From: Stropharia rugosoannulata
Lineage: Eukaryota; Basidiomycota; Agaricomycetes; Agaricales; Strophariaceae
Assembly (NCBI GenBank): GCA_028532985.1
Contig: JANCIK010000008.1
Location: forward strand, 3,381,658-3,445,657
Length of the DNA stretch: 64,000 nt
Direction: 5' to 3'
In this document: in pieces, positions 10,309 through 48,651 of the stretch
Position numbering within the stretch: position 1 is the first letter of the stretch
Layout: each line of letters opens with the position of its first letter
Program-made: the position numbers and the translations under genes
The notes under the pieces: model-generated
Databases searched by the model: none
What the model saw: only the letters and a program-made list of their open reading frames with translations
Told to the model about the DNA's origin: nothing

Positions 10309-11407
10309 TATGGCGGTCCATGTGTACTTTTATTCCGCGCAATTTTATGAGCCATATATTGCCCCGCAGAAATTTGAAGTGCCCCGCAGAAGTTGAAATT
10401 CCGCGCGCGCAGAAATGCAGTGTCTGAAATCTGCGCGGGGTGAGTTTTTCGAGTCAAATACACATTTTTTGTCCAAAAGCATGCATAGAAATGCCCGCGC
10501 GGAATTTTTACACTGCGCGCAGAAATTGAGAAATTGACTTGTACTCACATTTTTGACGTGCCGACGTGCCGTAGCTGGGATTTGATAATGTAAGTGATGC
10601 AGTCGGCATAACGGATCTCACACATCGGACTCTGAAAAAGTGTGGGAAATTGGCCCCCTAGCAGCGAGTGGAGAGCCTATTATACAATTGTCATCCCCTC
10701 CTTATAGCTTAAAGCGAGATAATGTATATGATTAATAAATTACTATGTACTTTCTCTGCAAAATGTGGTTTTTACGTTGGTTTAGTAAGAATAAAGATTG
10801 ACATCCTTAGGTGAATTATTGCATTGGAATATAACCCGAAAACAACCAATCAACGAGATGTTATACCTGACTTAGGTATATAATTCACACATTAAAGGAT
10901 CTGGTACATCTTTGAAGTAACTAGAATGATTACAAGATTTCCAATGGCAAGTAGACGGGCGCCATTAATGTTTACCTTACCCTTTCTTTGAAGTTTCCAC
11001 GGTATTTCAAAGTCCGAAAAGCCAGGCTCCGTGATGCCGACAGCATCACTTACATCATCAAAACCCAGCTCCGGCACGTCGGCACACCAAATTGGTGAGC
11101 ACAAGTCAATTTCTCAATTTCTGCGCGCGCAACACACACCTTGCATTAAATTTCTGCGCGCAGTGTAAAAATTCCGCGCGGGCATTTCTATGCATGCTTT
11201 TGGACAAAAAATGTGTATTTGACTCGAAAAACTCACCCCGCGCAGATTTCAGACACTGCATTTCTGCGCGCGCGGAATTTCAACTTCTGCGGGGCACTTC
11301 AAATTTCTGCGGGGCATTTAGAAATTCCGCGGGGCACTTAGATATTCTGCGGGGCAATATATGGTTTATAAAATTGCGCGGAATAAAAGTACACATGGAC
11401 CGCCATA
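10309..11407. mobile_element. 1.1-kb non-autonomous long-TIR element, copy A
   Basis: It starts TATGGCGGTCCATGTG and ends with the exact reverse complement CACATGGACCGCCATA. The inverted repeats extend about 240 bp inward (10309-10551 against about 11095-11407) and contain many GCGCGGAA/TTCCGCGC and GCCCCGCAGAA motifs. The unique centre (10560-11090) has no credible ORF. The same 16-bp termini are found on the 5.9-kb integrase transposon, so this is probably mobilised by it. The flanks do not match as a target duplication (CTCAAG against CCGCCA), and repeat R2 is found only on the left, suggesting post-insertion rearrangement. Confidence 0.85.
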
Positions 11408-18935: not shown

Positions 18936-19665
18936 GCTCTCGAGTTTACATGAAGCGCGTCAGCAACAACGCCAAAGACACGGAGTGAAGTCGAGGTATG
19001 ATCATAGAGTATATCTCTAGATGTCCTTTTTTATTTCATGAGCCCACATAAAGTTCTGAAAAAATGTTTCCTCCCAGTTTGACATTCCTAGTGGTTGTAG
19101 CTCAGCCATCGGACTGAATTTGAATACATACTTTACGCTCAATGGAATGGTATGACATGGTATAAATATTTACATGCAGAGAAAAATTGCTCTGAATACT
19201 AATGAAAATGAGTATGAGAATCTTGGCAGGTCAAAGTTGACCTTCAAAACTTTCGCCTACGCTTCAAATGCCCCAAGTTTGTCTGGGGACACAAAATGTC
19301 CCAAAATACTCTCGCGGAATATTTTCTCGCATGGACTGCCGTAGGGCTTCCTTATCCACGTCAATATGCATATTGAAGTCATCGGTGGTTCCACACAACT
19401 ACCCCTTATATGGCAAATTGCTGACATACTGTCTAGATTGTGTTCTGCAGTGTATATAGAAACTATCAAAATTATGATAAACACAACCGGTGCAATATTG
19501 AGTTTGACAAGACTCTACTACGGGTATAGTGCGTAGGAATATGGCAATGAATTAACTATACAAATCTTTTGGGCCTCAAAGAAGCCTATAGAACATCACC
19601 TCCAAACACTTGTTTACTCAAGGCAACACAATTTATGTCTCGCAGGGTGGCACCAGCTCTCGAAT
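18936..19665. other. No recognised gene; left part of a segmental duplication
   Basis: The part 19490-19665 is similar to 28660-28840, which precedes a broken copy of the same neighbouring gene. Nothing else is recognised. Confidence 0.4.
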
Positions 19666-20784
19666 CTACTTCGTATCAGTCCACTCTGTCCCTGACAGTA
19701 GAAGTTCTGTGCCGTCGTTGATTCCAAGGAGTCTGGCGCTATGGGCCCTCCCATTAGCTACGTAAGTTAAACAAAATCATGTTAGTACATGATAAAAGGG
19801 ATGCGTGGAATCACTTGCGAATGAACTTGATTGGTGTATCAAGAGGATATCAGACCATGTCACCCAAATCACAAAATAGACAGAACGCACATAGCCTGTT
19901 ATAACGGGGCCATTGATGCCACTGAAGTAGAAAACAATGCGGTCATTAGTATAGCTGACATGGGTACCGTCGCCTATATGTTGTAAGCTGGAGTAGTAGA
20001 AGTTACCCTTGATGTCTGTATGATCCACGTCGTTGTTAGGCTAGCTTGTGAATAGACAAAATTTATAGGTGCATACTTGGAATACCAGCCGCTTTCAAAG
20101 TAGAGTCATCGGTGACCATAGTTCCTATCTTCTGAATATTTCGGGAGATATCTAGGGTCACAGAACGATTATTTTCATCTTTTTTGACGTAGGCCTCCAC
20201 GTGGCGCTCAGTAGAGGATGTCCTCCACTTGCCCAAGTGTTTGTACATAACCATTCCCGCTACGGAAACAATTTTAAACTACTCAAGACAAAATAAATAA
20301 GATGATGACAGTTTGAGATTTAATAAAGCGCTTACATAGTCATCGGCAAGAAACTGTTGATTCAATAGATGGGACGCTGTTACTGTGAATTTTCTCAGTA
20401 AGAAACAAGGTATCACACCTCAGCAAGAACTGTGTCGTCAAGATAAAATTTGACCCATGCGATAAGTTGCCCGTTTTTTGGATTTGTTGTGCCTCCTGAT
20501 ACATAGCCATTAGCAGTCTTGACTGTGACAAGGTCGTCGTAATAGAAGAAACCAGTTGCATCTTGACAAAATTCATGTAACAGATGAGCAGATATCCTGT
20601 CGCAGGTCGATGGAAACATACCTTGCCCAATAAATGAATGGTCGCAAAATTCCATCCTTAGTTCGGGGAGCACGACTCGCAAGCCATGTTTATATCCTAG
20701 TAAGGAGGAGTGAAAAAATAGCGCGCCCGCAGAGGTCTGATGCTTGTATTTTACGAGGTATTCTGCATATATGCTACGATTCAT
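19666..20784 (-). CDS. Beta/gamma-crystallin-like protein, family copy 1
   Basis: Five exons can be followed from the ATG at 20784 (MNRSIYAEYLVKYKHQ) to a stop at 19666. Conserved blocks are an N-terminal SAGALFFHSS, GLRVVLPELRMEFCDHSFIG, a middle exon with NGQLIAWVKFYLDDTVLAEV, an exon with a KWRTSSTERHVEAYVKK segment, an exon with YVSYTNDR-like GTHVSYTNDRIVFYFSGING, and a last exon beginning ANGR (ANGRAHSARLLGINDGTELL). The aromatic-x6-Gly pattern (F-CDHSFI-G, F-YFSGIN-G) is that of beta/gamma-crystallin Greek-key motifs. The assignment is by pattern only. No signal peptide is seen. The function is unknown, and the protein is possibly a cytosolic lectin-like or calcium-binding protein. Confidence 0.55.
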
Positions 20785-20996: not shown

Positions 20997-22135
20997 TATG
21001 GCGGTCCATGTGTACTTTTATTCCGCGCAATTTTATGAGCCATATATTGCCCCGCAGAATATATAAGTGCCCCGCGGAATTTCTAGATGCCCCGCAGAAA
21101 TTTGAAGTGCCCCGCAGAAGTTGAAATTCCGCGCGCGCAGAAATGCAGTGTCTGAAATCTGCGCGGGGTGAGTTTTTCGAGTCAAATACATGTTTTTTGT
21201 CCAAAAGCATGCATAGAAATGCCTGCGCGGAATTTTTACACTGCGCGCAGAAATTGAGAAATTGACTTGTACTCACATTTTCGACGTGCCGACGTGCCGT
21301 GGCCAAGATTTGATGATGTAAGTGATGCGGTCGGCATAACGGATCTCACACATCGGACTCTGAAACATCGTGGGAAATTGGCCTCCTAGCAGGGAGTGGA
21401 GAGCCTATTATACAATTGTCAACCCCTCCTTATAGCTTAAAGCGAGCTAATGTATATGATTAATAAATTACTATGTACTTTCTCTGCAAAATGTGGTTTT
21501 TACCTTTGTTTAGTAAGAGTAAAGATTGACATCCTTAGGTGAATTATTGCATTGGAATATAACCCAAAAACAACCAATCAACCAGATGTTATACCTGACT
21601 TAGGTAGATAATTCACACGTCAAAGGATCTGGTACATCTTTGAAGTAACCAGAATGATTACAAGATTCTTAATGGCAAGTAGACGGGCGCCATTAATGTT
21701 TACCTTACCCTTGCTTTGAAGTTTCCACGGTATTTCAAAGTCCGAAAAGCCAGGCTCCGTGATGCCGACAGCATCACTTACATCATCAAAACCCAGCTCC
21801 GGCACGTCGGCACACCAAATTGGTGAGCACAAGTCAATTTCTCAATTTCTGCGCGCGCAACAGACACTTTGCATTAAATTTCTGCGCGCAGTGTAAAAAA
21901 TCCGCGCGGGCATTTCTATGCATACTTCTGGACAAAAAACGTGCATTTGACTCAAAAAACTCACCCCGCGCAGATTTCAGACACCGTATTTCTGCGCGCG
22001 CGGGATTTCAACTTCTGCGGGGCACTTCAAATTTCTGCGGGGCATTTAGAAATTCCGCGGGGCACTTATATATTCTGCGGGGCAATATATGGCTCATAAA
22101 ACTGCGCGGAATAAAAGTACACATGGACCGCCATA
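20997..22135. mobile_element. 1.1-kb non-autonomous long-TIR element, copy B
   Basis: It has the same structure as copy A: TATGGCGGTCCATGTG at the left, its exact complement at the right, long inverted repeats rich in GCGCGGAA, and a unique centre (21290-21830) that matches the centre of copy A with few differences. Small indels distinguish the copies; for example, two extra GCCCCGC-type units lie near 21050-21095. There is no target duplication (TGTGTG against AGCCGC). Confidence 0.85.
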
Positions 22136-22650
22136 AGCCGCAGCGTAGCGAGGCGGAACTTGTGCCTCTATATAAACAACGTACAAACATCTAAAAAGCG
22201 GCAAAATGATAGCATTTCCTATATCTTGATTGGCTCGATTCCCTGATCGGTCGCTTTTTCCGTTGTGGGAAGGGAAGACATTGCTAACATGGGTCTTACC
22301 CCACGGTAAGAAGTTCACAATTAGCCATGTGATCCCATGCACGACGATTGAAGCCATAAAACCTCCCAATAATGACCAATTCATGTCTATATCTTTACTT
22401 GATGATTACCACGCATCCCACGGTACACATTTTAATCCGAGGTTCTTTTAGGGTCCATGATTTAAATGGCCTTGACAGATGTTATCGCATTGTACATATA
22501 CCTGTCAGTTTATACTATTTCAACTGACAGTCAGAGAGCTGACGTTCGGAGATGAAAGTGCCACCAGGATCTTGATAATTTGCAGCCACATTAATAAGTG
22601 GCGTAAGTGGCGCTGTACGAAGGTATAGATAGGGAAGAATACATTACCTA
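22136..22650. other. Segment duplicated at 29.06-29.40 kb
   Basis: Blocks at 22405-22460 and 22545-22650 recur at 29058-29112 and 29268-29400, with the palindromic MITE lying between them in the second copy. No gene is supported. Confidence 0.5.
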
Positions 22651-22656
22651 CATACG

Positions 22657-23181
22657 TATGGCGGTCCATGTGAGGAAATATTCCGCGCGAATATTATCTA
22701 AGATCTGGACTGCGCGAGAGTTTTCACATGTCTGCGCGGAAATACTTGTCTTGCGCGAAAGTTTTGGGATGTGCGCGAAAGTTTTGAGATGTGCGCGAAA
22801 GTTTTGAAACATGCGCGAAAGTTTTGAGATGTGCGCGGAAAATCTTAAAATGTGCGCAAATGAATTGTTAGGTATGATTACCTGCGCGGAATAAGTTATC
22901 TCACTGCGCGGAAACTTTTGCCACTTGCGCGAAAGTTTTGAGCATCTGCGCGGAAATGAAAAGAATGTGCTCCCACGGCCTTGCCGGGCAGCCGGGCATG
23001 CCAAGCATACATAGCCGTAGAGCCGTCGGAGGTTCAAAATAAAATCGGGACGCGGCATCACGCACGGCATCCGTGTGAACCACAGTTCACACGGGCCCCA
23101 ACCAAGGTGCTACAGCAATAAACGTCGAATTATATTGTTTTAAAGGAATGTAGGTTATTTAAACGAATGTATGAGGTATTA
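22657..23181. repeat. Left terminal inverted repeat of the integrase transposon
   Basis: This TIR contains at least five tandem copies of a roughly 20-bp unit of the form GTGCGCGAAAGTTTTGAGAT between 22740 and 22860. It continues through GCGCGGAA motifs and a unique segment (22960-23181) repeated inverted at 28096-28320. It is slightly longer than the right repeat because of extra sub-repeat units. Confidence 0.9.
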
Positions 23182-23196
23182 AAATGAAGCCCGTGA

Positions 23197-24264
23197 TTAC
23201 ACTAAAGCTGCACGAACGCTATGTAACAAAGTATTGACCATGTTGTGCTCTGTCCAGATATGCCCGCACTCATCACGAAGCCATTTAAGAATAAACTGCT
23301 TACATGATGGATTCATGCCTATATGATCGATTTTCTCCAACAGTCCGACAATTTGGCGTAAAGGTAGTGGTGATGTAGGATGATGGATCTTCCTTACGAC
23401 AACACGAAACCAGTGCTCTGTCCAAATATCCAAGCACTTCACATGCTGAGTCTCTTTGCAGTACTCGGCACCATCCCAGTTTCTCGGTATTGGAGGGTAG
23501 TTGGCAAGTTGCATACGCTGAGTACTTATTGCCTCCTTTCCCGCAGCAATAATAGCGAAGACACGGTACCCCATGTTCTCGAGATCTGCCTGGGAAAAAT
23601 CCTAAAATATGCATCAGCTCATGTTAGAGGCGAACCAAGGTCGATTTACTTACTTGTAAGCGCTGCAGAATAAGCTCCGATATGGCGGGAGAAATCCAGC
23701 TTTCCAAGTCGTAATGCTGAGCAAGGTAGAGGCGACGGGCAGCAGTAGGAGGCGGTTTGAGTTTCAAAAGCTCGTTGCTGGCAAAGGTTATTCCCGGAGA
23801 AATATCCCACATGTGACAGACATGAAGAATATCCAGGAGCTGCTGTTTGTGCTCAGTCTCCAACGGAGACCATGAGCTAAGCTTATTTTAGTAAATTATT
23901 TGTTTTAATATATTAGAACTTACTCATGATTAATCCATGCACAAAAATTTGCGAAAGCATCTGCGGTACAGCCTTGAATACGTATAGGATTTAATGCGGA
24001 TCCTTCACCATTGACTCCAAGTACTCCGTTAGTTCCAACAAGCATATCACGGAGAAATTTGGAGTGTCTGGTCAGGCGCATAGAGTCTATACGAAAAGCA
24101 CGCTTCCCGACCTGGACAAGACACACAGAATGCCAAGTGTGAGAATGTGAGAATAAAAATAAACAAAATTCACACACTCTAAAGGACACTATCGAAATGT
24201 CATTTTCGTGACCGGGGTCATAGACAAAGTCACCATCGGAGTTAGGCAACATGTCTTGGTCCAT
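23197..24264 (-). CDS. BTB/POZ-like domain protein of the transposon
   Basis: The reading starts at ATG 24264 (MDQDMLPNSDGDFVYD). Exons are joined by short introns near 24177-24118, 23926-23880 and 23640-23600. The first two exons read DISIVSF, then an intron, then FRIDSMRLTRHSKFLRDMLVG and a segment with IRIQGCTADAFANFCAWI. This is the arrangement of fungal BTB/POZ domains, in which a strand-turn-strand is followed by a helix with SxxFRDM. The C-terminal exons give an alpha-helical region (HKQQLLDILHVCHMWDIS, DLESWISPAISELILQRLQ) ending LLHSVRAALV. BTB domains mediate dimerisation and bind cullin-3 or chromatin partners. A role in transposon regulation is inference. It lies divergent from the integrase gene. 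Confidence 0.65.
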
Positions 24265-24543
24265 GAGATTAAGCAGTGAAGTCAAACAGTTATTGGAACA
24301 GTACAGTAGATAGAGGATGCCGGAGCAACTGCTCTGAGGATCGAACACAAGACAACCCCCTTTAAATATACACGGAAGAAGTGTGATTGCAGTATCTAAT
24401 AATAAACCAAGGTAGAGCATGCCCGGTGAGGTCGATGCTTCCAGTATTTCGGTACAGATTGCTTCTACTGTGCACCGAGTATCGACAGGGAAGAGAGATA
24501 GATATAAACATGTTTTTCATTTTCCTTCTTATTCCTTTCGATC

Positions 24544-26601
24544 ATGAACTTTTCATCATTGCCACAACGCACGGAGCCATGGTCAACATCTATAATCGAT
24601 TCCTACCAGCGCTTAAGCCAGATATATGACACCACTGTGTGGTACCTGAATGCAGGGAACTTTGAAGGTCATCGCTTACAACAATACGGAAATTCAATAA
24701 TCAAGGATGCATATCCGATACTCCTGCTTCTATCGGAAGCGTCACCAAGGGAGGGCTTACCAATGGAGTGGGTTGATAATGCTGCCGAAGAGTTCACGGG
24801 CCTGCTGGAGCTTGTTGATGATCATTGGATTGCACTGTCTAATGAGTACGTCATGACATTTTTTACATAGTGTATGTTGAATTTGTATGTGCACAACAGA
24901 ACATCCACTCGTGTTTCCTTTCTGCAGCCTGTTCACCAGAGAAGGACTGGAAAACGTGGGCGTCCTCGAAAGCAGATTGATTCGGAGATCCTTCACAATG
25001 CCTTTGAGAATGATCGGCGTATTCCTGTTAATGTTCTTGCTGGAATATTAGGGGTTGATCGCAAAACACTTCGTTCTAGAATAAATGAACTTGGAATCGA
25101 CACCGGCTACAGCTCTATTAGTGATGAAGAACTTGATCAATTAATTGAACAATATCGTCAGGAACATCCAAGCGGTGGCCGGTCATATATTATTGGACAG
25201 CTGCGTTCTTCACATTCATTAAAAATTCAAAGACAGAGAGTCATCGACTCAATGAATCGGTTAGACAGGCTTGGCCAAGCTTTGCACAAACGTGTAGGGA
25301 AGAAAAAGGAAAGGAAGCGCTATGAAGTGCCGCGTCCCAATGCGCTGTGGCATATTGACGGCCATCACAAGCTGATTACGTGGGGGATTGTCATACATGG
25401 CATTGCCGATGGCTACTCTCGTAAAGTATGTCTTGATATGCATGGCTTCAAGGATCTCTTATGTAAAGATATTGCGTACATTTTAGATTACTGGACTTCG
25501 AGCCAGTACGGACAACACCGCTGCAACAGTTCTTGATCTATTCATTGATGCCATCACTGATCACGGTGTGCCACTTCGTGTTAGAGGAGACAGAGGAGGA
25601 GAGAACAGAGATGTATCAATTTTAATGATCTTACTTCGTGGACTTAACAAGGCCAGTTTTCTATGGGGATCGTCAGTATTCAATACCCGTATTGAGCGGC
25701 TATGGGTAGAGGCTGGGAAGAGATTTGTACGTCAATGGAGGGCATTCTTTATTCGCTTAGAACAGCAACATCTGTTTGACCGTCACAATGCACATCACCG
25801 ATGGTTGCTTCAATACCTCTTCCTTGACAGTATTAATGAAGACTGCGAAGCATTCTCAAATGAATGGAACTCTCATCCGATCTCTGGCGTTGGTGGTGGA
25901 TATTCACCCAATGTGACGTATATCTGCTATTTATATTACATTTCATTAATTATTAATTAGGATCTCGTTTTTATGGGCGAATTAAAGCATGGAATATATG
26001 ATGATGAGTGCGATGGACTTTTAGAAGAGGAAGTCAACGCATTCTTTGGCTTTACACCAGATGGATTACCTTTGGATACACCCGACTTCGACCTGTCTGA
26101 CACCGACAGTGAAATTGATAACAATGAAATCAAAGCCGCTTCCTCATCACGAAATGATGACGAGAATGAGGTCACTAGCCCTTATTCAGATGTACAGCAA
26201 CATGACGACATTAATTTTAATTTTAATACTCAGGTAAGCATTGGGTATTTAATGCAGAAGTGGGATTAAACCTTTGTACATGTACTCAGGTTGTAGACAA
26301 AAATATTCGACATGATGCTGTACCCGTGCCACCTGGTTCGTCACCTTTTGATGCAGACACACTGTCCATTTTCGAGCAGGGTCTTTTGTTGCTTCTGGAT
26401 GATGATGAAGTGCCGCCAGGATATGGCGCAACCGAGGGAGAGTTAGGCAATGAGGGGTTCAATGAAACACAAGAAATTTCTATAGGCCTCAGACGGCATG
26501 GCCATCACATTGTTTTACCTACTTCGATTTGGAAGCCTAGGGTGGTCTTGTGGGCAAAGGGTCTGTGCACCATGTCGCATGTACTTGCAGCGCAAAGATA
26601 G
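24544..26601 (+). CDS. Retroviral-type DDE integrase/transposase
   Basis: The exons carry an N-terminal helical region, a helix-turn-helix-like segment (LAGILGVDRKTLRSRINELG), and an RNase H-fold integrase core with catalytic residues at WHIDG (Asp), VRGDRGGEN (Asp) and RIERLW (Glu). The second Asp and Glu are 34 residues apart, close to the DD35E spacing of retroviral integrases. A GT-AG intron inside the core (about 25426-25490) joins YSRK to ITGLRA in frame. A second (about 25910-25961) and a third (about 26233-26289) lead to an acidic C-terminal region. The join between the first open segment (to about 24840) and the core exon (from about 24928) is not in frame with the obvious splice sites, so the N-terminus is unresolved. 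Related single integrase-core genes are common in Agaricomycetes. Confidence 0.75.
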
Positions 26602-26689
26602 ATATATTTTTCGTATTTATTCTGGGTTTGGATAGAGAGGACGAGACATACATTTCCTTGCTTTCCGAAATTCATCTCTGGTGTTCTCA

Positions 26690-28006
26690 ATGGCTACTCA
26701 TTTCTCGAAAGGAAAGGGAAGACGACTTCGCAGTCCGTCAAGCTCTTCCGCATCAGAGGGATGTGGTGACAACTCTGACAACGAGCGACCATCCAAGCGT
26801 GCACGGCAGGAGTCACCCGAGCGGGTTCAGTCCGCAATGATGTCGAGGATGGCCACCCGGTCTGCATCCCGTGGATTGGCTGGCCTTAAATCACTTGTCA
26901 GTAGCTCCAGCTTATCCGCCGCTCGCTCAGAGACCGTCCGTGGGACACAGTCTGGGGCTGCTTCACGCTCTGCATCACGGCGTGTGGCCCCAAAGTACAC
27001 GGCTACAAAAAGCGTGAGCTTTCTTTTCATATACTTTAAATGACATACATTCTTATATTTATTTTGTTACAGGAAGAGCGCATTCTTGTTGGGACTATTG
27101 TCTTCTTAATAGTCGGTGTTACAGTTGTACGTCTGAGTCATTCTACAATAAATACTTACTCACAATTCTATTAGAATGACATGAACAACGCCAGCAGCTC
27201 AAAATCGAAATCTTTTGTCCCTATATACAAACTGTCGTCGAAAGTCGATATTTCTGTTCTTGGGCTCATGGGCCTGAAACAAGCCGGTTTGTGTGCTATG
27301 AGGAACACCGGCTTTGAGTTTCTTGAGAGCGATACATACACTACCCTTTCTGAAAAGCTTGCCGACATTTTTCCTAGGGTCTTCAACTGGTTTTCGGAGT
27401 CTGGCAGTGCCTCTGAAGCGGAGGGGTCATGGCTTGTGTGTTGCAAGCCTCCTCGCACTAAACTTGCCGTTTTCTCAGACCACACCTCATTACCGACGGG
27501 GTTTGACATTATGACTGCTTGTCAAATGGCGACCAGTAAGTCAGGGATAGCCAATAGAATATTGTATCTTGGTAAGTTACATAGCATTCTTTGAGATATG
27601 AATTACTTCTGACAAAGCTTGTAGTCTCTTGCACACCTGTTCCGGATAATGTTGTTGCGCAGTGGAAGCCGAGTCTTGCATCTCCTGTAACTGATTCCAA
27701 CCAAGAATTAGATACAAGTACACCAGCATCGAGTGTCGCCATTCCCACGGCCATGCAACAGGCACCTTATACGCAGCTATCTTATTCAATCCATGGTTCC
27801 AGCTCCGAAGTTGAACAGGATGTACTTAATGCATTGGGTGAGTCTAACCTACTTGTTTATTTATGCATCAGTTAACTGACTTTTGCGCAGATTCAGACAC
27901 TGAAGGACAGGCCAAGAAGCCCGATGTGACATTCAGCAGCATTGCACAGCGAGTTACTACCAAGGCTATGGCCCAATTCAGTGATGATGAAAACCCATGG
28001 GTTTAA
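26690..28006 (+). CDS. Transposon-borne membrane-anchored protein of unknown function
   Basis: The reading starts at ATG 26690 (MATHFSKGKGRRLRSPSSSS). The N-terminus is Ser/Arg-rich with an RPSKRARQ basic patch. After an intron (about 27014-27072) comes a single hydrophobic span, ILVGTIVFLIVGVTV. After a second intron comes a 140-residue domain starting near 27178 (FVPIYKLSSKVDISVLGLMG, GSWLVCCKPPRTKLAVFSDH). Two small final exons end AMAQFSDDENPWV-stop. No family is recognised. The position inside the TIRs, 89 bases after the integrase stop and on the same strand, argues that it is part of the mobile unit. Confidence 0.6.
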
Positions 28007-28095
28007 TACCTTCGTAGTTTCTCGCAGTTTGTGACCTCTTTTTCAGTCTGCTTACACAATACCGACCTCATAAGATACACTACACGCTCATTTAC

Positions 28096-28597
28096 TACCT
28101 CATACATTCGTTTAAATAACCTACATTCCTTTAAAACAATATAATTCGACGTTTATTGCTGTAGCACCTTGGTTGGGGCCCGTGTGAACTGTGGTTCACA
28201 CGGATGCCGTGCGTGATGCCGCGTCCCGATTTTATTTTGAACCTCCGACGGCTCTACGGCTATGTATGCTTGGCATGCCCGGCTGCCCGGCAAGGCCGTG
28301 GGAGCACATTCTTTTCATTTCCGCGCAGATGCTCAAAACTTTCGCGCAAGTGGCAAAAGTTTCCGCGCAGTGAGATAACTTATTCCGCGCAGGTAATCAT
28401 ACCTAACAATTTATCCGCGCACACCTTATGAATTTCCGCGCAGAGTTTAAAACTTCTGCGCACATCTCAAAACTTTCGCGCATGTTTCAAAACTTTCGCG
28501 CAAGACAAGTATTTCCGCGCAGACATGTGAAAACTCTCGCGCAGCCCAAATTTGGGATAATATTCGCGCGGAATATTTCCTCACATGGACCACCATA
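28096..28597. repeat. Right terminal inverted repeat of the integrase transposon
   Basis: This is the inverted copy of 22657-23181. The inner 220 bases are identical or nearly so to the left copy. The outer part has fewer GCGCGAAAGTTTTGA-type sub-repeats and one terminal mismatch. Confidence 0.9.
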
Positions 28598-28659
28598 CAT
28601 ACGCTTCGCCTGGATTATGTCCTGTAGCGTATGTAAAAATACTATGAACACATCCGGTG

Positions 28660-29060
28660 AAATAGTGTGTTTCACAAGACTCTACTACTAGGGACATAAT
28701 GTGTAGGAATATTGCAATAGATTAACGCTACAAATATTTTGGGCCACACACTGGAAGCCCGTAGAACATCATCTCGGAGTCAATACACTTGTTTACTAAA
28801 GGCAACACGAGTTATTCCTCGAAGAGTCGCGCAGCTCACAGATTTCTATCGTTAAGATTAAAGTGTCTGGCGCTATGATGATGGGCCTTCCCATTAGCTA
28901 CGTAAGTTGAACAAAAACATGTTCAGTATCTGAAAAAGGATGTGTCAAGTCACTTGCGAATAAGCTTGATTGGTGTATCAAGAGGATATCATACCAATAT
29001 CTGATGCTTGTATTTTGAGAGGTACTCTGCATATATCCTATGGTTCTGTTCTAGGATTAT
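28660..29060 (-). pseudogene. Crystallin-like family copy 2, internal deletion
   Basis: The block 28660-28990 aligns with the 3' flank and last exon of copy 1 (19490-19860). At about 28995 the sequence jumps straight to the first-exon region (TCTGATGCTTGTATTTT, matching 20737). About 880 bases, including the three middle exons, are missing. The last exon is also altered. Confidence 0.7.
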
Positions 29061-29120
29061 CACGCATCCCACGGTACATATTTTGATCCAAGGTTCTTTT
29101 AGGGTCCGTGACTTAACATT

Positions 29121-29268
29121 AACACCCCAGGAACCTGAGGTTTTCAAGTCACCTGAGATTGTAGGAGAAAACTTGATTTACGAGTTTCAGTCCACCTGAA
29201 AACGGCAATTTAATCAAAGTTTCTCCCACAATCTCAGGTGACCTGAAAACCTCAGGTTCCTGGGGTGA
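29121..29268. mobile_element. 148-bp palindromic MITE
   Basis: CACCCCAGGAACCTGAGGTT is followed about 110 bases later by its reverse complement, with arms of about 60 bp that stay complementary with few mismatches (TCACCTGAGATTGT against ACAATCTCAGGTGA). A diverged partial relative with the motif GACAATTTCAGGTAACATGA lies at about 39712-39790. The element separates two blocks that are duplicates of 22.4-22.65 kb. Confidence 0.75.
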
Positions 29269-48061: not shown

Positions 48062-48651
48062 TATGGTGTATGGTGAGTTATTTGCACATTTATTCCCACG
48101 TCCCCCCCCTCCTGATCGGAGTGCGCCCCCTCGCTCTCAAAAGACTTCAATCTCTAATTTAACTTCTAATGCCCTGTAATTCGTAGTGATATACAGGAAT
48201 TTTACTCTATGTAGTATAAACTGTATATTATATCCATCTCATGTACCAACGATGCAATCATTATATTGCTACTTTACAAAATCAACCTACTATGTTATTC
48301 TGAAGGTCTTGTTAATAGTAAAATACTCGTAAATAGCATATTCACCACTTGAAAGTAATATTTCTTTGGCTAATTTAGTGATCTGAGGTTTGACATCTTG
48401 AGTGGGAGGGGGGAACACTCAAGTGAGGGGGGGGGGAACAATCGTGGGAAATTGAAATGATGGCACTGAAATCAAGGAAATGTGATCGTTTCTAGTCCAT
48501 TTCTATGAGTATCACAGTTTGGGTATATCAGAAAGATGTATAATATTATGTTTAAATACTGTACATAAGTTATAATCATAATAAAATAAAATTTCATGTC
48601 GTTGTGAGAGGGGGGGGGATGTGGGAATAAATGTGCAAATAACTCACCATA
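48062..48651. mobile_element. 590-bp MITE with G-run terminal inverted repeats
   Basis: It begins TATGGTGAGTTATTTGCACA and ends with the complement, with inverted repeats of about 45 bp that run through TTTATTCCCAC into C8/G9 homopolymers. The ends TATGG...CCATA resemble the outermost bases of the integrase transposon, but the rest differs. The interior is AT-rich, with further runs of seven to ten G near 48410-48437. No ORF is present and no target duplication is evident. Confidence 0.75.

What the first reader, a model, noticed from the sequence alone, without database searches (positions are those of the whole stretch)
22657..28597. New-looking transposon type: long TIRs, 6-bp duplication, DDE integrase plus BTB-like and membrane protein genes
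Seen: exact CATACG duplication, about 500-bp TIRs, three spliced genes, catalytic D-D-34-E. Known: rve-type integrases with 6-bp duplications occur in Polintons, but those carry polymerase and capsid genes. I know of no described superfamily combining this integrase with BTB and single-span membrane proteins. The near-identical TIR interiors suggest recent activity.
Basis: partly seen in the sequence, partly recalled or inferred. Interest (0 to 1): 0.88.

Follow-up and report, generated by a model that had tools for sequence, protein, structure and literature searches.

The report
Three-gene IS3EU transposon of mushroom fungi
This 5.9-kb stretch fits the published description of the IS3EU group of DNA transposons, so it is likely not a new transposon type, but two extra genes beside its integrase gene are present in all five end-bounded, integrase-bearing copies found in this genome and are likely helpers of its movement.

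Summary
The element is real. It runs 22657-28597, flanked by exact CATACG copies, with 507-527-bp inverted repeats and three intron-containing gene models. One encodes a D-D-34-E integrase (Pfam rva_4, E 4e-60). Its type is probably not new: TATGG..CCATA ends, 6-bp duplications, long inverted repeats and an integrase nearest to bacterial IS481/IS3 fit the published description of fungal IS3EU. I could not place the integrase in a tree beside named IS3EU sequences. What looks undescribed is the gene set. All five integrase copies with paired ends found in this genome carry the same trio in the same order: a divergent gene A, the integrase B and a downstream gene C. They span three end types, with integrases 33-54% identical to this one over matched stretches. 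Gene C also follows the integrase in eight annotated gene models from other fungi (Agrocybe, Psilocybe, Lanmaoa and others). A is weakly BTB/POZ-like. C is not convincingly a membrane protein; its hydrophobic stretch is rarely kept, and it has a basic, nuclear-signal-like start. At least 38 short pairs share this copy's outermost 16-bp motif. Of 44 end pairs checked, 33 have 6-8-bp duplications. New variant of a known kind; the window copy's repeats differ by about 5%, so it is not especially young.

The parts
22651..22656 (.). target-site duplication, left copy (CATACG)
   Evidence: random control
28598..28603 (.). target-site duplication, right copy (CATACG)
22657..23183 (+). left terminal inverted repeat, begins TATGGCGGTCCATGTGAGG, with subterminal ~20-bp repeats of the type TGCGCGAAAGTTTTG
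28091..28597 (-). right terminal inverted repeat, ends ..CCTCACATGGACCACCATA
23197..24264 (-). gene A, 4 exons (24178-24264, 23924-24111, 23654-23876, 23197-23601), 300 aa; weakly BTB/POZ-like N-terminal half, predicted helical C-terminal half with conserved Cys/Trp
   Evidence: model; Pfam BTB E 0.027; profile to SKP1 E 0.011-0.03; conservation; helices predicted on relative P0123
24544..26601 (+). gene B, 5 exons (24544-24845, 24900-25425, 25487-25912, 25961-26233, 26290-26601), 612 aa; IS3EU-type DDE integrase/transposase with weak HTH and AT-hook-like matches and an acidic C-terminal extension
   Evidence: PF24764 E 3.9e-60; IS481 1.8e-13 and IS3 9.8e-13, both below cut-off
25357..25359 (+). 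codon of catalytic D254
   Evidence: conservation
25589..25591 (+). codon of catalytic D311
   Evidence: conservation
25694..25696 (+). codon of catalytic E346
   Evidence: conservation
26690..28006 (+). gene C, 5 exons (26690-27013, 27073-27126, 27175-27571, 27625-27837, 27891-28006), 367 aa; basic Ser/Arg-rich start, conserved ~100-aa core, NPW at the C-terminus
   Evidence: homologues
10309..11407 (.). short non-autonomous relative with the same outermost motif, no target duplication seen
20997..22135 (.). short non-autonomous relative with the same outermost motif, no target duplication seen; 521 bp from the element

Best explanation
The feature at 22657-28597 is a TIR-bounded DNA transposon that likely belongs to the IS3EU superfamily, to a probable mushroom lineage in which the integrase gene B is kept together with a divergent gene A and a downstream gene C, and it is predicted to move by integrase-catalysed cut and paste. 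Shown: the ends, duplications, gene order, catalytic triad, presence of the trio in five copies, and many short copies sharing the end motif. Inferred: B binds the long inverted repeats and their subterminal ~20-bp repeats, cuts at TATGG/CCATA, and joins the ends to target strands staggered by 6 (sometimes 7) bp. Inferred: B, or relatives of it, also moves the short copies. Inferred: A (BTB/POZ-like) and C (nuclear-signal-like) are helpers of transposition or of escape from host silencing, because genes of no use to an element would not be expected to stay in place across diverged copies. That the host is an Agaricomycete is inferred from the integrase's nearest named relatives.
For: Ends, duplication and TIRs. 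Integrase: PF24764 E 3.9e-60; nearest prokaryotic families IS481 1.8e-13 and IS3 9.8e-13, both below their cut-offs; no zinc HHCC-type match listed at E up to 1. 33 of 44 end pairs examined carry a 6-bp (20), 7-bp (12) or 8-bp (1) duplication. Whole-genome end patterns: 83 places for TAYGGCNGTCCATGTG (exact) and 137 for TATGGTGAGTTATTTGCAC (up to one mismatch), each 0 in the reversed control. The trio in the same order and orientation occurs in 5 of 5 TIR-bounded integrase copies, the window's included. A has 11 invariant columns in an alignment of five copies and the metagenome protein P0123. C is found downstream of the integrase in 8 of the 10 listed models of 840 aa or more; one of them (P0001) was in the first profile's seed, and the other seven were hit before they entered a seed. 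The window copy is the only integrase copy found with its end type, against 38 short pairs. Published parallel: Styx, linked to IS3EU by its authors, made new insertions with 6-bp duplications in a Zymoseptoria pedigree (PMC10853768, passages).
Against: No named IS3EU transposase could be fetched, so the tree placement is untested. Six of the eleven integrase places found have no end pair seen (one of the six was not fetched); of the five fetched, A was found in one and C in none. One of these (L048) is close to L046 in the integrase tree, so the trio can be lost or decay. A and C matches in the two most distant copies are modest (A 4e-4 and 3e-8; C 5e-7 and 1.4e-6), with E-values for a small sequence set. 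11 of 44 pairs have no duplication of 6 bp or more, L044 among them. No expression, excision or empty-site data.
Confidence: 0.85

Rival explanations
1. A and C are chance passengers: host genes captured once by an IS3EU element, with no role in transposition.
For: Other fungal IS3EU elements carry different extra genes (TET and alpha-kinase; GATA, CCHC and DUF3577), so cargo is exchangeable. The A profile is only weakly BTB-like, and the genome holds at least 14 other BTB places.
Against: The same two genes sit in the same places in three end types whose integrases are only 33-54% identical to this one over matched stretches, and C follows the integrase in gene models from several genera. Passengers without use would be expected to be lost.
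Confidence: 0.2
2. A new superfamily distinct from IS3EU.
For: No IS3EU reference transposase was available to compare; A and C were not reported for IS3EU in the papers found ('BTB' occurs 0 times in the three IS3EU papers searched for it).
Against: Ends, duplication length, TIR length, absence of an HHCC match, IS481/IS3 affinity and position of the first catalytic D (residue 254) all match the published description.
Confidence: 0.07
3. A Polinton/Maverick or Ginger relative.
Against: No polymerase or capsid match in the three proteins; 5.9 kb with three genes only; rve matches far below rva_4 (30 against 203 bits); Ginger makes 4- or 5-bp duplications.
Confidence: 0.02

Closest known systems
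TET-bearing IS3EU of rust fungi (PMC12730594)
   Same: 6-bp duplications, TIRs over 30 bp, TAYGG..CCRTA ends, transposase gene plus extra genes, one of them (alpha-kinase) in opposite orientation to the transposase
   Different: Those carry TET/JBP and alpha-kinase genes; the proteins here match neither in Pfam
Styx of Zymoseptoria (PMC10853768)
   Same: DDD/E integrase that its authors link to IS3EU, 6-bp duplications, several extra genes, mobile in a pedigree
   Different: 7,927 bp, 36-bp TIR, extra genes with GATA, CCHC and DUF3577 domains
IS3EU/GingerRoot superfamily in general (PMC10045372)
   Same: TA..TA ends, usually 6-bp duplications, no HHCC motif, first catalytic D 100-300 residues from the start
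   Different: The passages seen mention no A or C genes
Polinton/Maverick
   Same: rve-fold integrase, 6-bp duplication, long TIRs (TIRs recalled)
   Different: Polymerase and capsid genes absent here

Membership tests
IS3EU | 6-bp target-site duplication (usual) | tested here: met
   CATACG; of 44 pairs 20 have 6 bp, 12 have 7 bp, 1 has 8 bp, 11 less
IS3EU | ends TAYGG..CCRTA (fungal), TA..TA in general | tested here: met
   TATGG..CCATA; definition in PMC12730594 and PMC10045372
IS3EU | TIRs longer than 30 bp (fungal) | tested here: met
   507-527 bp
IS3EU | DDD/E transposase related to IS3/IS481, first D 100-300 residues from the start, no HHCC | tested here: met
   the IS481 and IS3 matches are significant but below their curated cut-offs
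IS3EU | transposase clusters with IS3EU/GingerRoot in a tree | not testable with these tools
   no named IS3EU sequence was available; the tree holds only database relatives and genome copies
TET-bearing IS3EU of rusts | TET/JBP and alpha-kinase genes | tested here: not met
   no such Pfam match in A, B or C at E up to 1
Polinton/Maverick | polymerase and capsid genes | tested here: not met
   no such Pfam match in the three proteins, whose genes span 23197-28006 of the interior 23184-28090
Ginger1/Ginger2 | 4-bp or 4- to 5-bp duplications | tested here: not met
   6-8 bp in 33 of 44 pairs, 0, 2 or 3 matching bases in the rest
BTB/POZ proteins (gene A) | BTB/POZ domain | tested here: inconclusive
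single-span membrane proteins (gene C) | conserved transmembrane segment | tested here: inconclusive
   hydrophobic stretch kept in P0121 but not in the four fused models examined (alignment)

The most novel reading that the evidence does not exclude
A mushroom lineage of IS3EU carries an obligatory three-part transposition kit in which a BTB/POZ-like adaptor and a new nuclear protein family (gene C) act with the integrase, for example by recruiting a host ubiquitin ligase or chromatin factor to defeat silencing, a strategy parallel to the TET genes of rust transposons.
Probability: 0.3. Interest if true: 0.7.

Novelty: new variant of a known kind. Interest (0 to 1): 0.42.

Why it matters
It turns a 'new superfamily' claim into IS3EU and gives the group a testable gene set in mushrooms. 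If A and C prove necessary, they would be a further case, after the TET/JBP genes of rust transposons, of fungal DNA transposons carrying dedicated helper or counter-silencing proteins. Gene C, for which neither Pfam nor AlphaFold gave an identity here, would gain a context. The fused integrase-C gene models in public fungal proteomes may be annotation artefacts or true fusions; this was not resolved.

Tried and rejected
Polinton, Ginger and a new superfamily were considered and set aside (see rivals). 'Membrane protein' for C was examined and not kept. AlphaFold of C through P0121 was poor (mean pLDDT 42.7), so no fold search was made with it. AlphaFold of A through P0123 gave a confident helical second half but an unreliable first 99 residues. 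Foldseek gave nothing at E 0.001 or better, and the VIA-align second look gave only weak BTB rows among unrelated ones. Pfam scans of the aligned relatives added nothing firm for A or for C (its matches are the integrase domain and weak helix-turn-helix-type and other hits in the rows scanned). phmmer of B against PDB sequences found nothing at E up to 1. A scan of viral contigs with B found no relative. Divergence between the two near-identical copies (83 substitutions, 72 of them transitions) was not worked into a test of selection. Paper searches: 'IS3EU' (35 papers, 20 listed), 'GingerRoot' with 'transposon', 'IS3EU' with 'BTB' (one paper, on buffalo mastitis), BTB domain with transposable element, Agaricomycetes and expansion (none), 'IS3EU' with 'Agaricomycetes' (three papers; passages of all three seen, none mentioning this trio), BTB with transposase, terminal inverted repeats and basidiomycete (listing only, three papers). 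So 'undescribed' means not found in these searches of an open-licence library; Repbase was not available.

Full report
Observation. The element lies at 22657-28597 between exact CATACG copies; random positions at the same spacing matched in 16 of 50,000 draws. Its inverted repeats are 527 and 507 bp, 91-92% identical over a 531-column match, with an inner 412 bp at 95%. In a global alignment they hold 27 substitutions in 511 gap-free columns and 40 gap columns. Three gene models read through GT-AG introns of 47-66 bp without internal stops: A (minus, 300 aa), B (plus, 612 aa), C (plus, 367 aa). A and B start 279 bp apart, divergently. The models are mine, made by eye from frames and splice signals; no transcript was seen.

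The integrase. B matches Pfam rva_4 (E 3.9e-60) and only weakly rve (6.6e-7, below cut-off), with faint helix-turn-helix and AT-hook matches ahead of the core and no zinc HHCC-type match listed. Among curated prokaryotic families the nearest are IS481 (1.8e-13) and IS3 (9.8e-13), both below their cut-offs. 316 database proteins match at E 0.001 or better (only the 7,994 candidates sharing most words were scored; 120 are listed). D, D and E are kept in 122 of 122, 118 of 120 and 115 of 118 sequences with a letter at that column, out of 127. In that tree (FastTree, no outgroup) the window integrase is nearest to P0048, P0055, P0058, P0008 (Psilocybe) and P0001 (Agrocybe), then to L043/L044; L045, L046 and L048 group near P0020, P0035 and P0028.

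Which family. Passages of PMC12730594 describe fungal IS3EU as making 6-bp duplications, with TIRs over 30 bp and TAYGG..CCRTA ends. Passages of PMC10045372 give TA..TA ends, usually 6-bp duplications, no HHCC motif, and a first catalytic D 100-300 residues from the start. The window element fits each (TATGG..CCATA; D at residue 254). IS3EU is reported from other mushroom genera: Ganoderma (PMC8955403, passage) and Phlebopus (PMC12411881, a table row). A tree beside named IS3EU transposases could not be made.

Copies in the genome. The assembly has 47.97 Mb in 20 contigs. Integrase matches fall in eleven places (the tool calls such counts lower bounds). Five are bounded by paired ends: the window; C2 (locus L043, 6,304 bp, 7-bp duplication AACCATG); C8 about 330 kb (L044, 6,362 bp, no duplication of 6 bp or more visible); C7 about 3.187 Mb (L045, 5,579 bp, CGGCGC); C7 about 1.636 Mb (L046, 5,456 bp, AGCATT). 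Of the other six, five were fetched as 9.9-kb stretches (L047-L051) and no end pair was found in them; C7:1743787 was not fetched.

The trio. tblastn and profile searches place A (divergent), B and C in the same order in all five bounded copies. A: strong in L043 and L044, E 3e-8 in L046 and 4e-4 in L045. C: strong in L043 and L044 (part of the second profile's seed came from L043), 5e-7 in L045 and 1.4e-6 in L046; in the first profile, without any genome copy but the window, C gave 3e-24 and 4e-24 in L043 and L044, 2e-4 in L045 and 2e-3 in L046. The E-values are for the open stretches of nine loci. Integrase identity to the window is about 53% in L043/L044, 38% in L045 and 33-50% by pieces in L046. 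In the five unbounded places fetched, A appears once (L051, beside an integrase fragment) and C not at all. Outside this genome, C follows the integrase inside eight annotated gene models: P0001 Agrocybe (first seed), P0008 Psilocybe, P0040 Coprinellus, P0044 Favolaschia, P0028, P0075 and P0080 Lanmaoa, and P0078 Marasmius. The first profile already found P0008 (3e-33), P0044 (3e-10), P0040 (9e-9), P0028 (1e-4), P0080 (3e-3) and P0075 (6e-3); the second, with P0008, P0040 and P0044 added to the seed, gave the three Lanmaoa models 4e-16 to 3e-12 and P0078 2e-9. Ten of the 120 listed models are 840 aa or longer; P0059 and P0088 showed no C. Free-standing C relatives were two: Phlegmacium and an unnamed one (988 candidates scored); one A relative came from a JGI record (495 candidates).

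Short relatives. The exact pattern TAYGGCNGTCCATGTG occurs at 83 places against 0 reversed, forming 38 pairs of 762-2,525 bp; the window element's own right end differs by one base and is not counted. No other integrase place lies inside such a pair. A second end type, TATGGTGAGTTATTTGCAC, shared with L045 and L046, occurs at 137 places with up to one mismatch, against 0 (only the first places were listed). I examined 44 pairs of three end types: those in the window, in L043-L046, and in the further stretches that could be fetched; L065, L067 and L069 were fetched but gave no pair and L070-L071 were left out as lying in the window. 20 have a 6-bp duplication, 12 a 7-bp, 1 an 8-bp, and 11 less. 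These support mobility of the ends in this genome. That B itself moved the short copies is inference.

Age. Two sister copies have repeats identical at all but one gap-free position (L043) or at every position (L044) and differ from each other at 83 sites. The window copy has about 5% substitutions between its repeats, so it is not a recent one, unless repeats are being homogenised in the sisters.

Mechanism. The most likely course is cut and paste by B on the long inverted repeats with 6- or 7-bp staggered joining, as inferred from the ends and from Styx, whose new insertions in a pedigree bear 6-bp duplications and which its authors think moves by a non-replicative mechanism (PMC10853768, passages). 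A and C as helpers or silencing escape factors rest on conservation alone.

Verdict. A real transposon, very likely of a known superfamily, with a conserved gene trio not found described in the searches made.

Noticed in passing
L044:794-9387: The C8 sister copy lies inside 1,116-bp flanks that are 100% inverted copies of each other and begin with another IS3EU-like end (TATGGGCGTCC); no 6-bp duplication at either boundary. It may be an inverted duplication or an assembly feature.
   Followed up: partly
window 48069-48651: A short element of the second end type (TATGGTGAGTTATTTGCAC), 583 bp, without a visible duplication.
   Followed up: partly
L043, L054, L055, L058, L061, L077, L078, L081, L082, L085, L088, L089: Twelve of 44 end pairs have a 7-bp rather than 6-bp duplication, so the stagger is not fixed.
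   Followed up: yes
window 29124-29266 (about): A short near-perfect inverted repeat (..CCTGAGGTTTTCAAGTCACCTGAG.. and its complement), read by eye, perhaps another small foldback element.
   Followed up: no
window 22404-22465 and 29055-29116: A 62-bp direct repeat at 90% on both sides of the element; DNA similar to the right flank recurs at 19468-19857 and 20736-20782, so the flanks are repeats themselves.
   Followed up: partly
L045:6984-7535: The open stretch ahead of the gene C match in this copy holds a cysteine cluster (CRGVTNGKPCDCEAF..CVECNHGPSKH) not seen in the window's C; a similar C..C.H stretch stands near the start of the C part of P0040.
   Followed up: no
G000:C11:1886003-1886581: A gene A relative (E 6.5e-23) with no integrase match listed nearby; an orphan or relic.
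   Followed up: no
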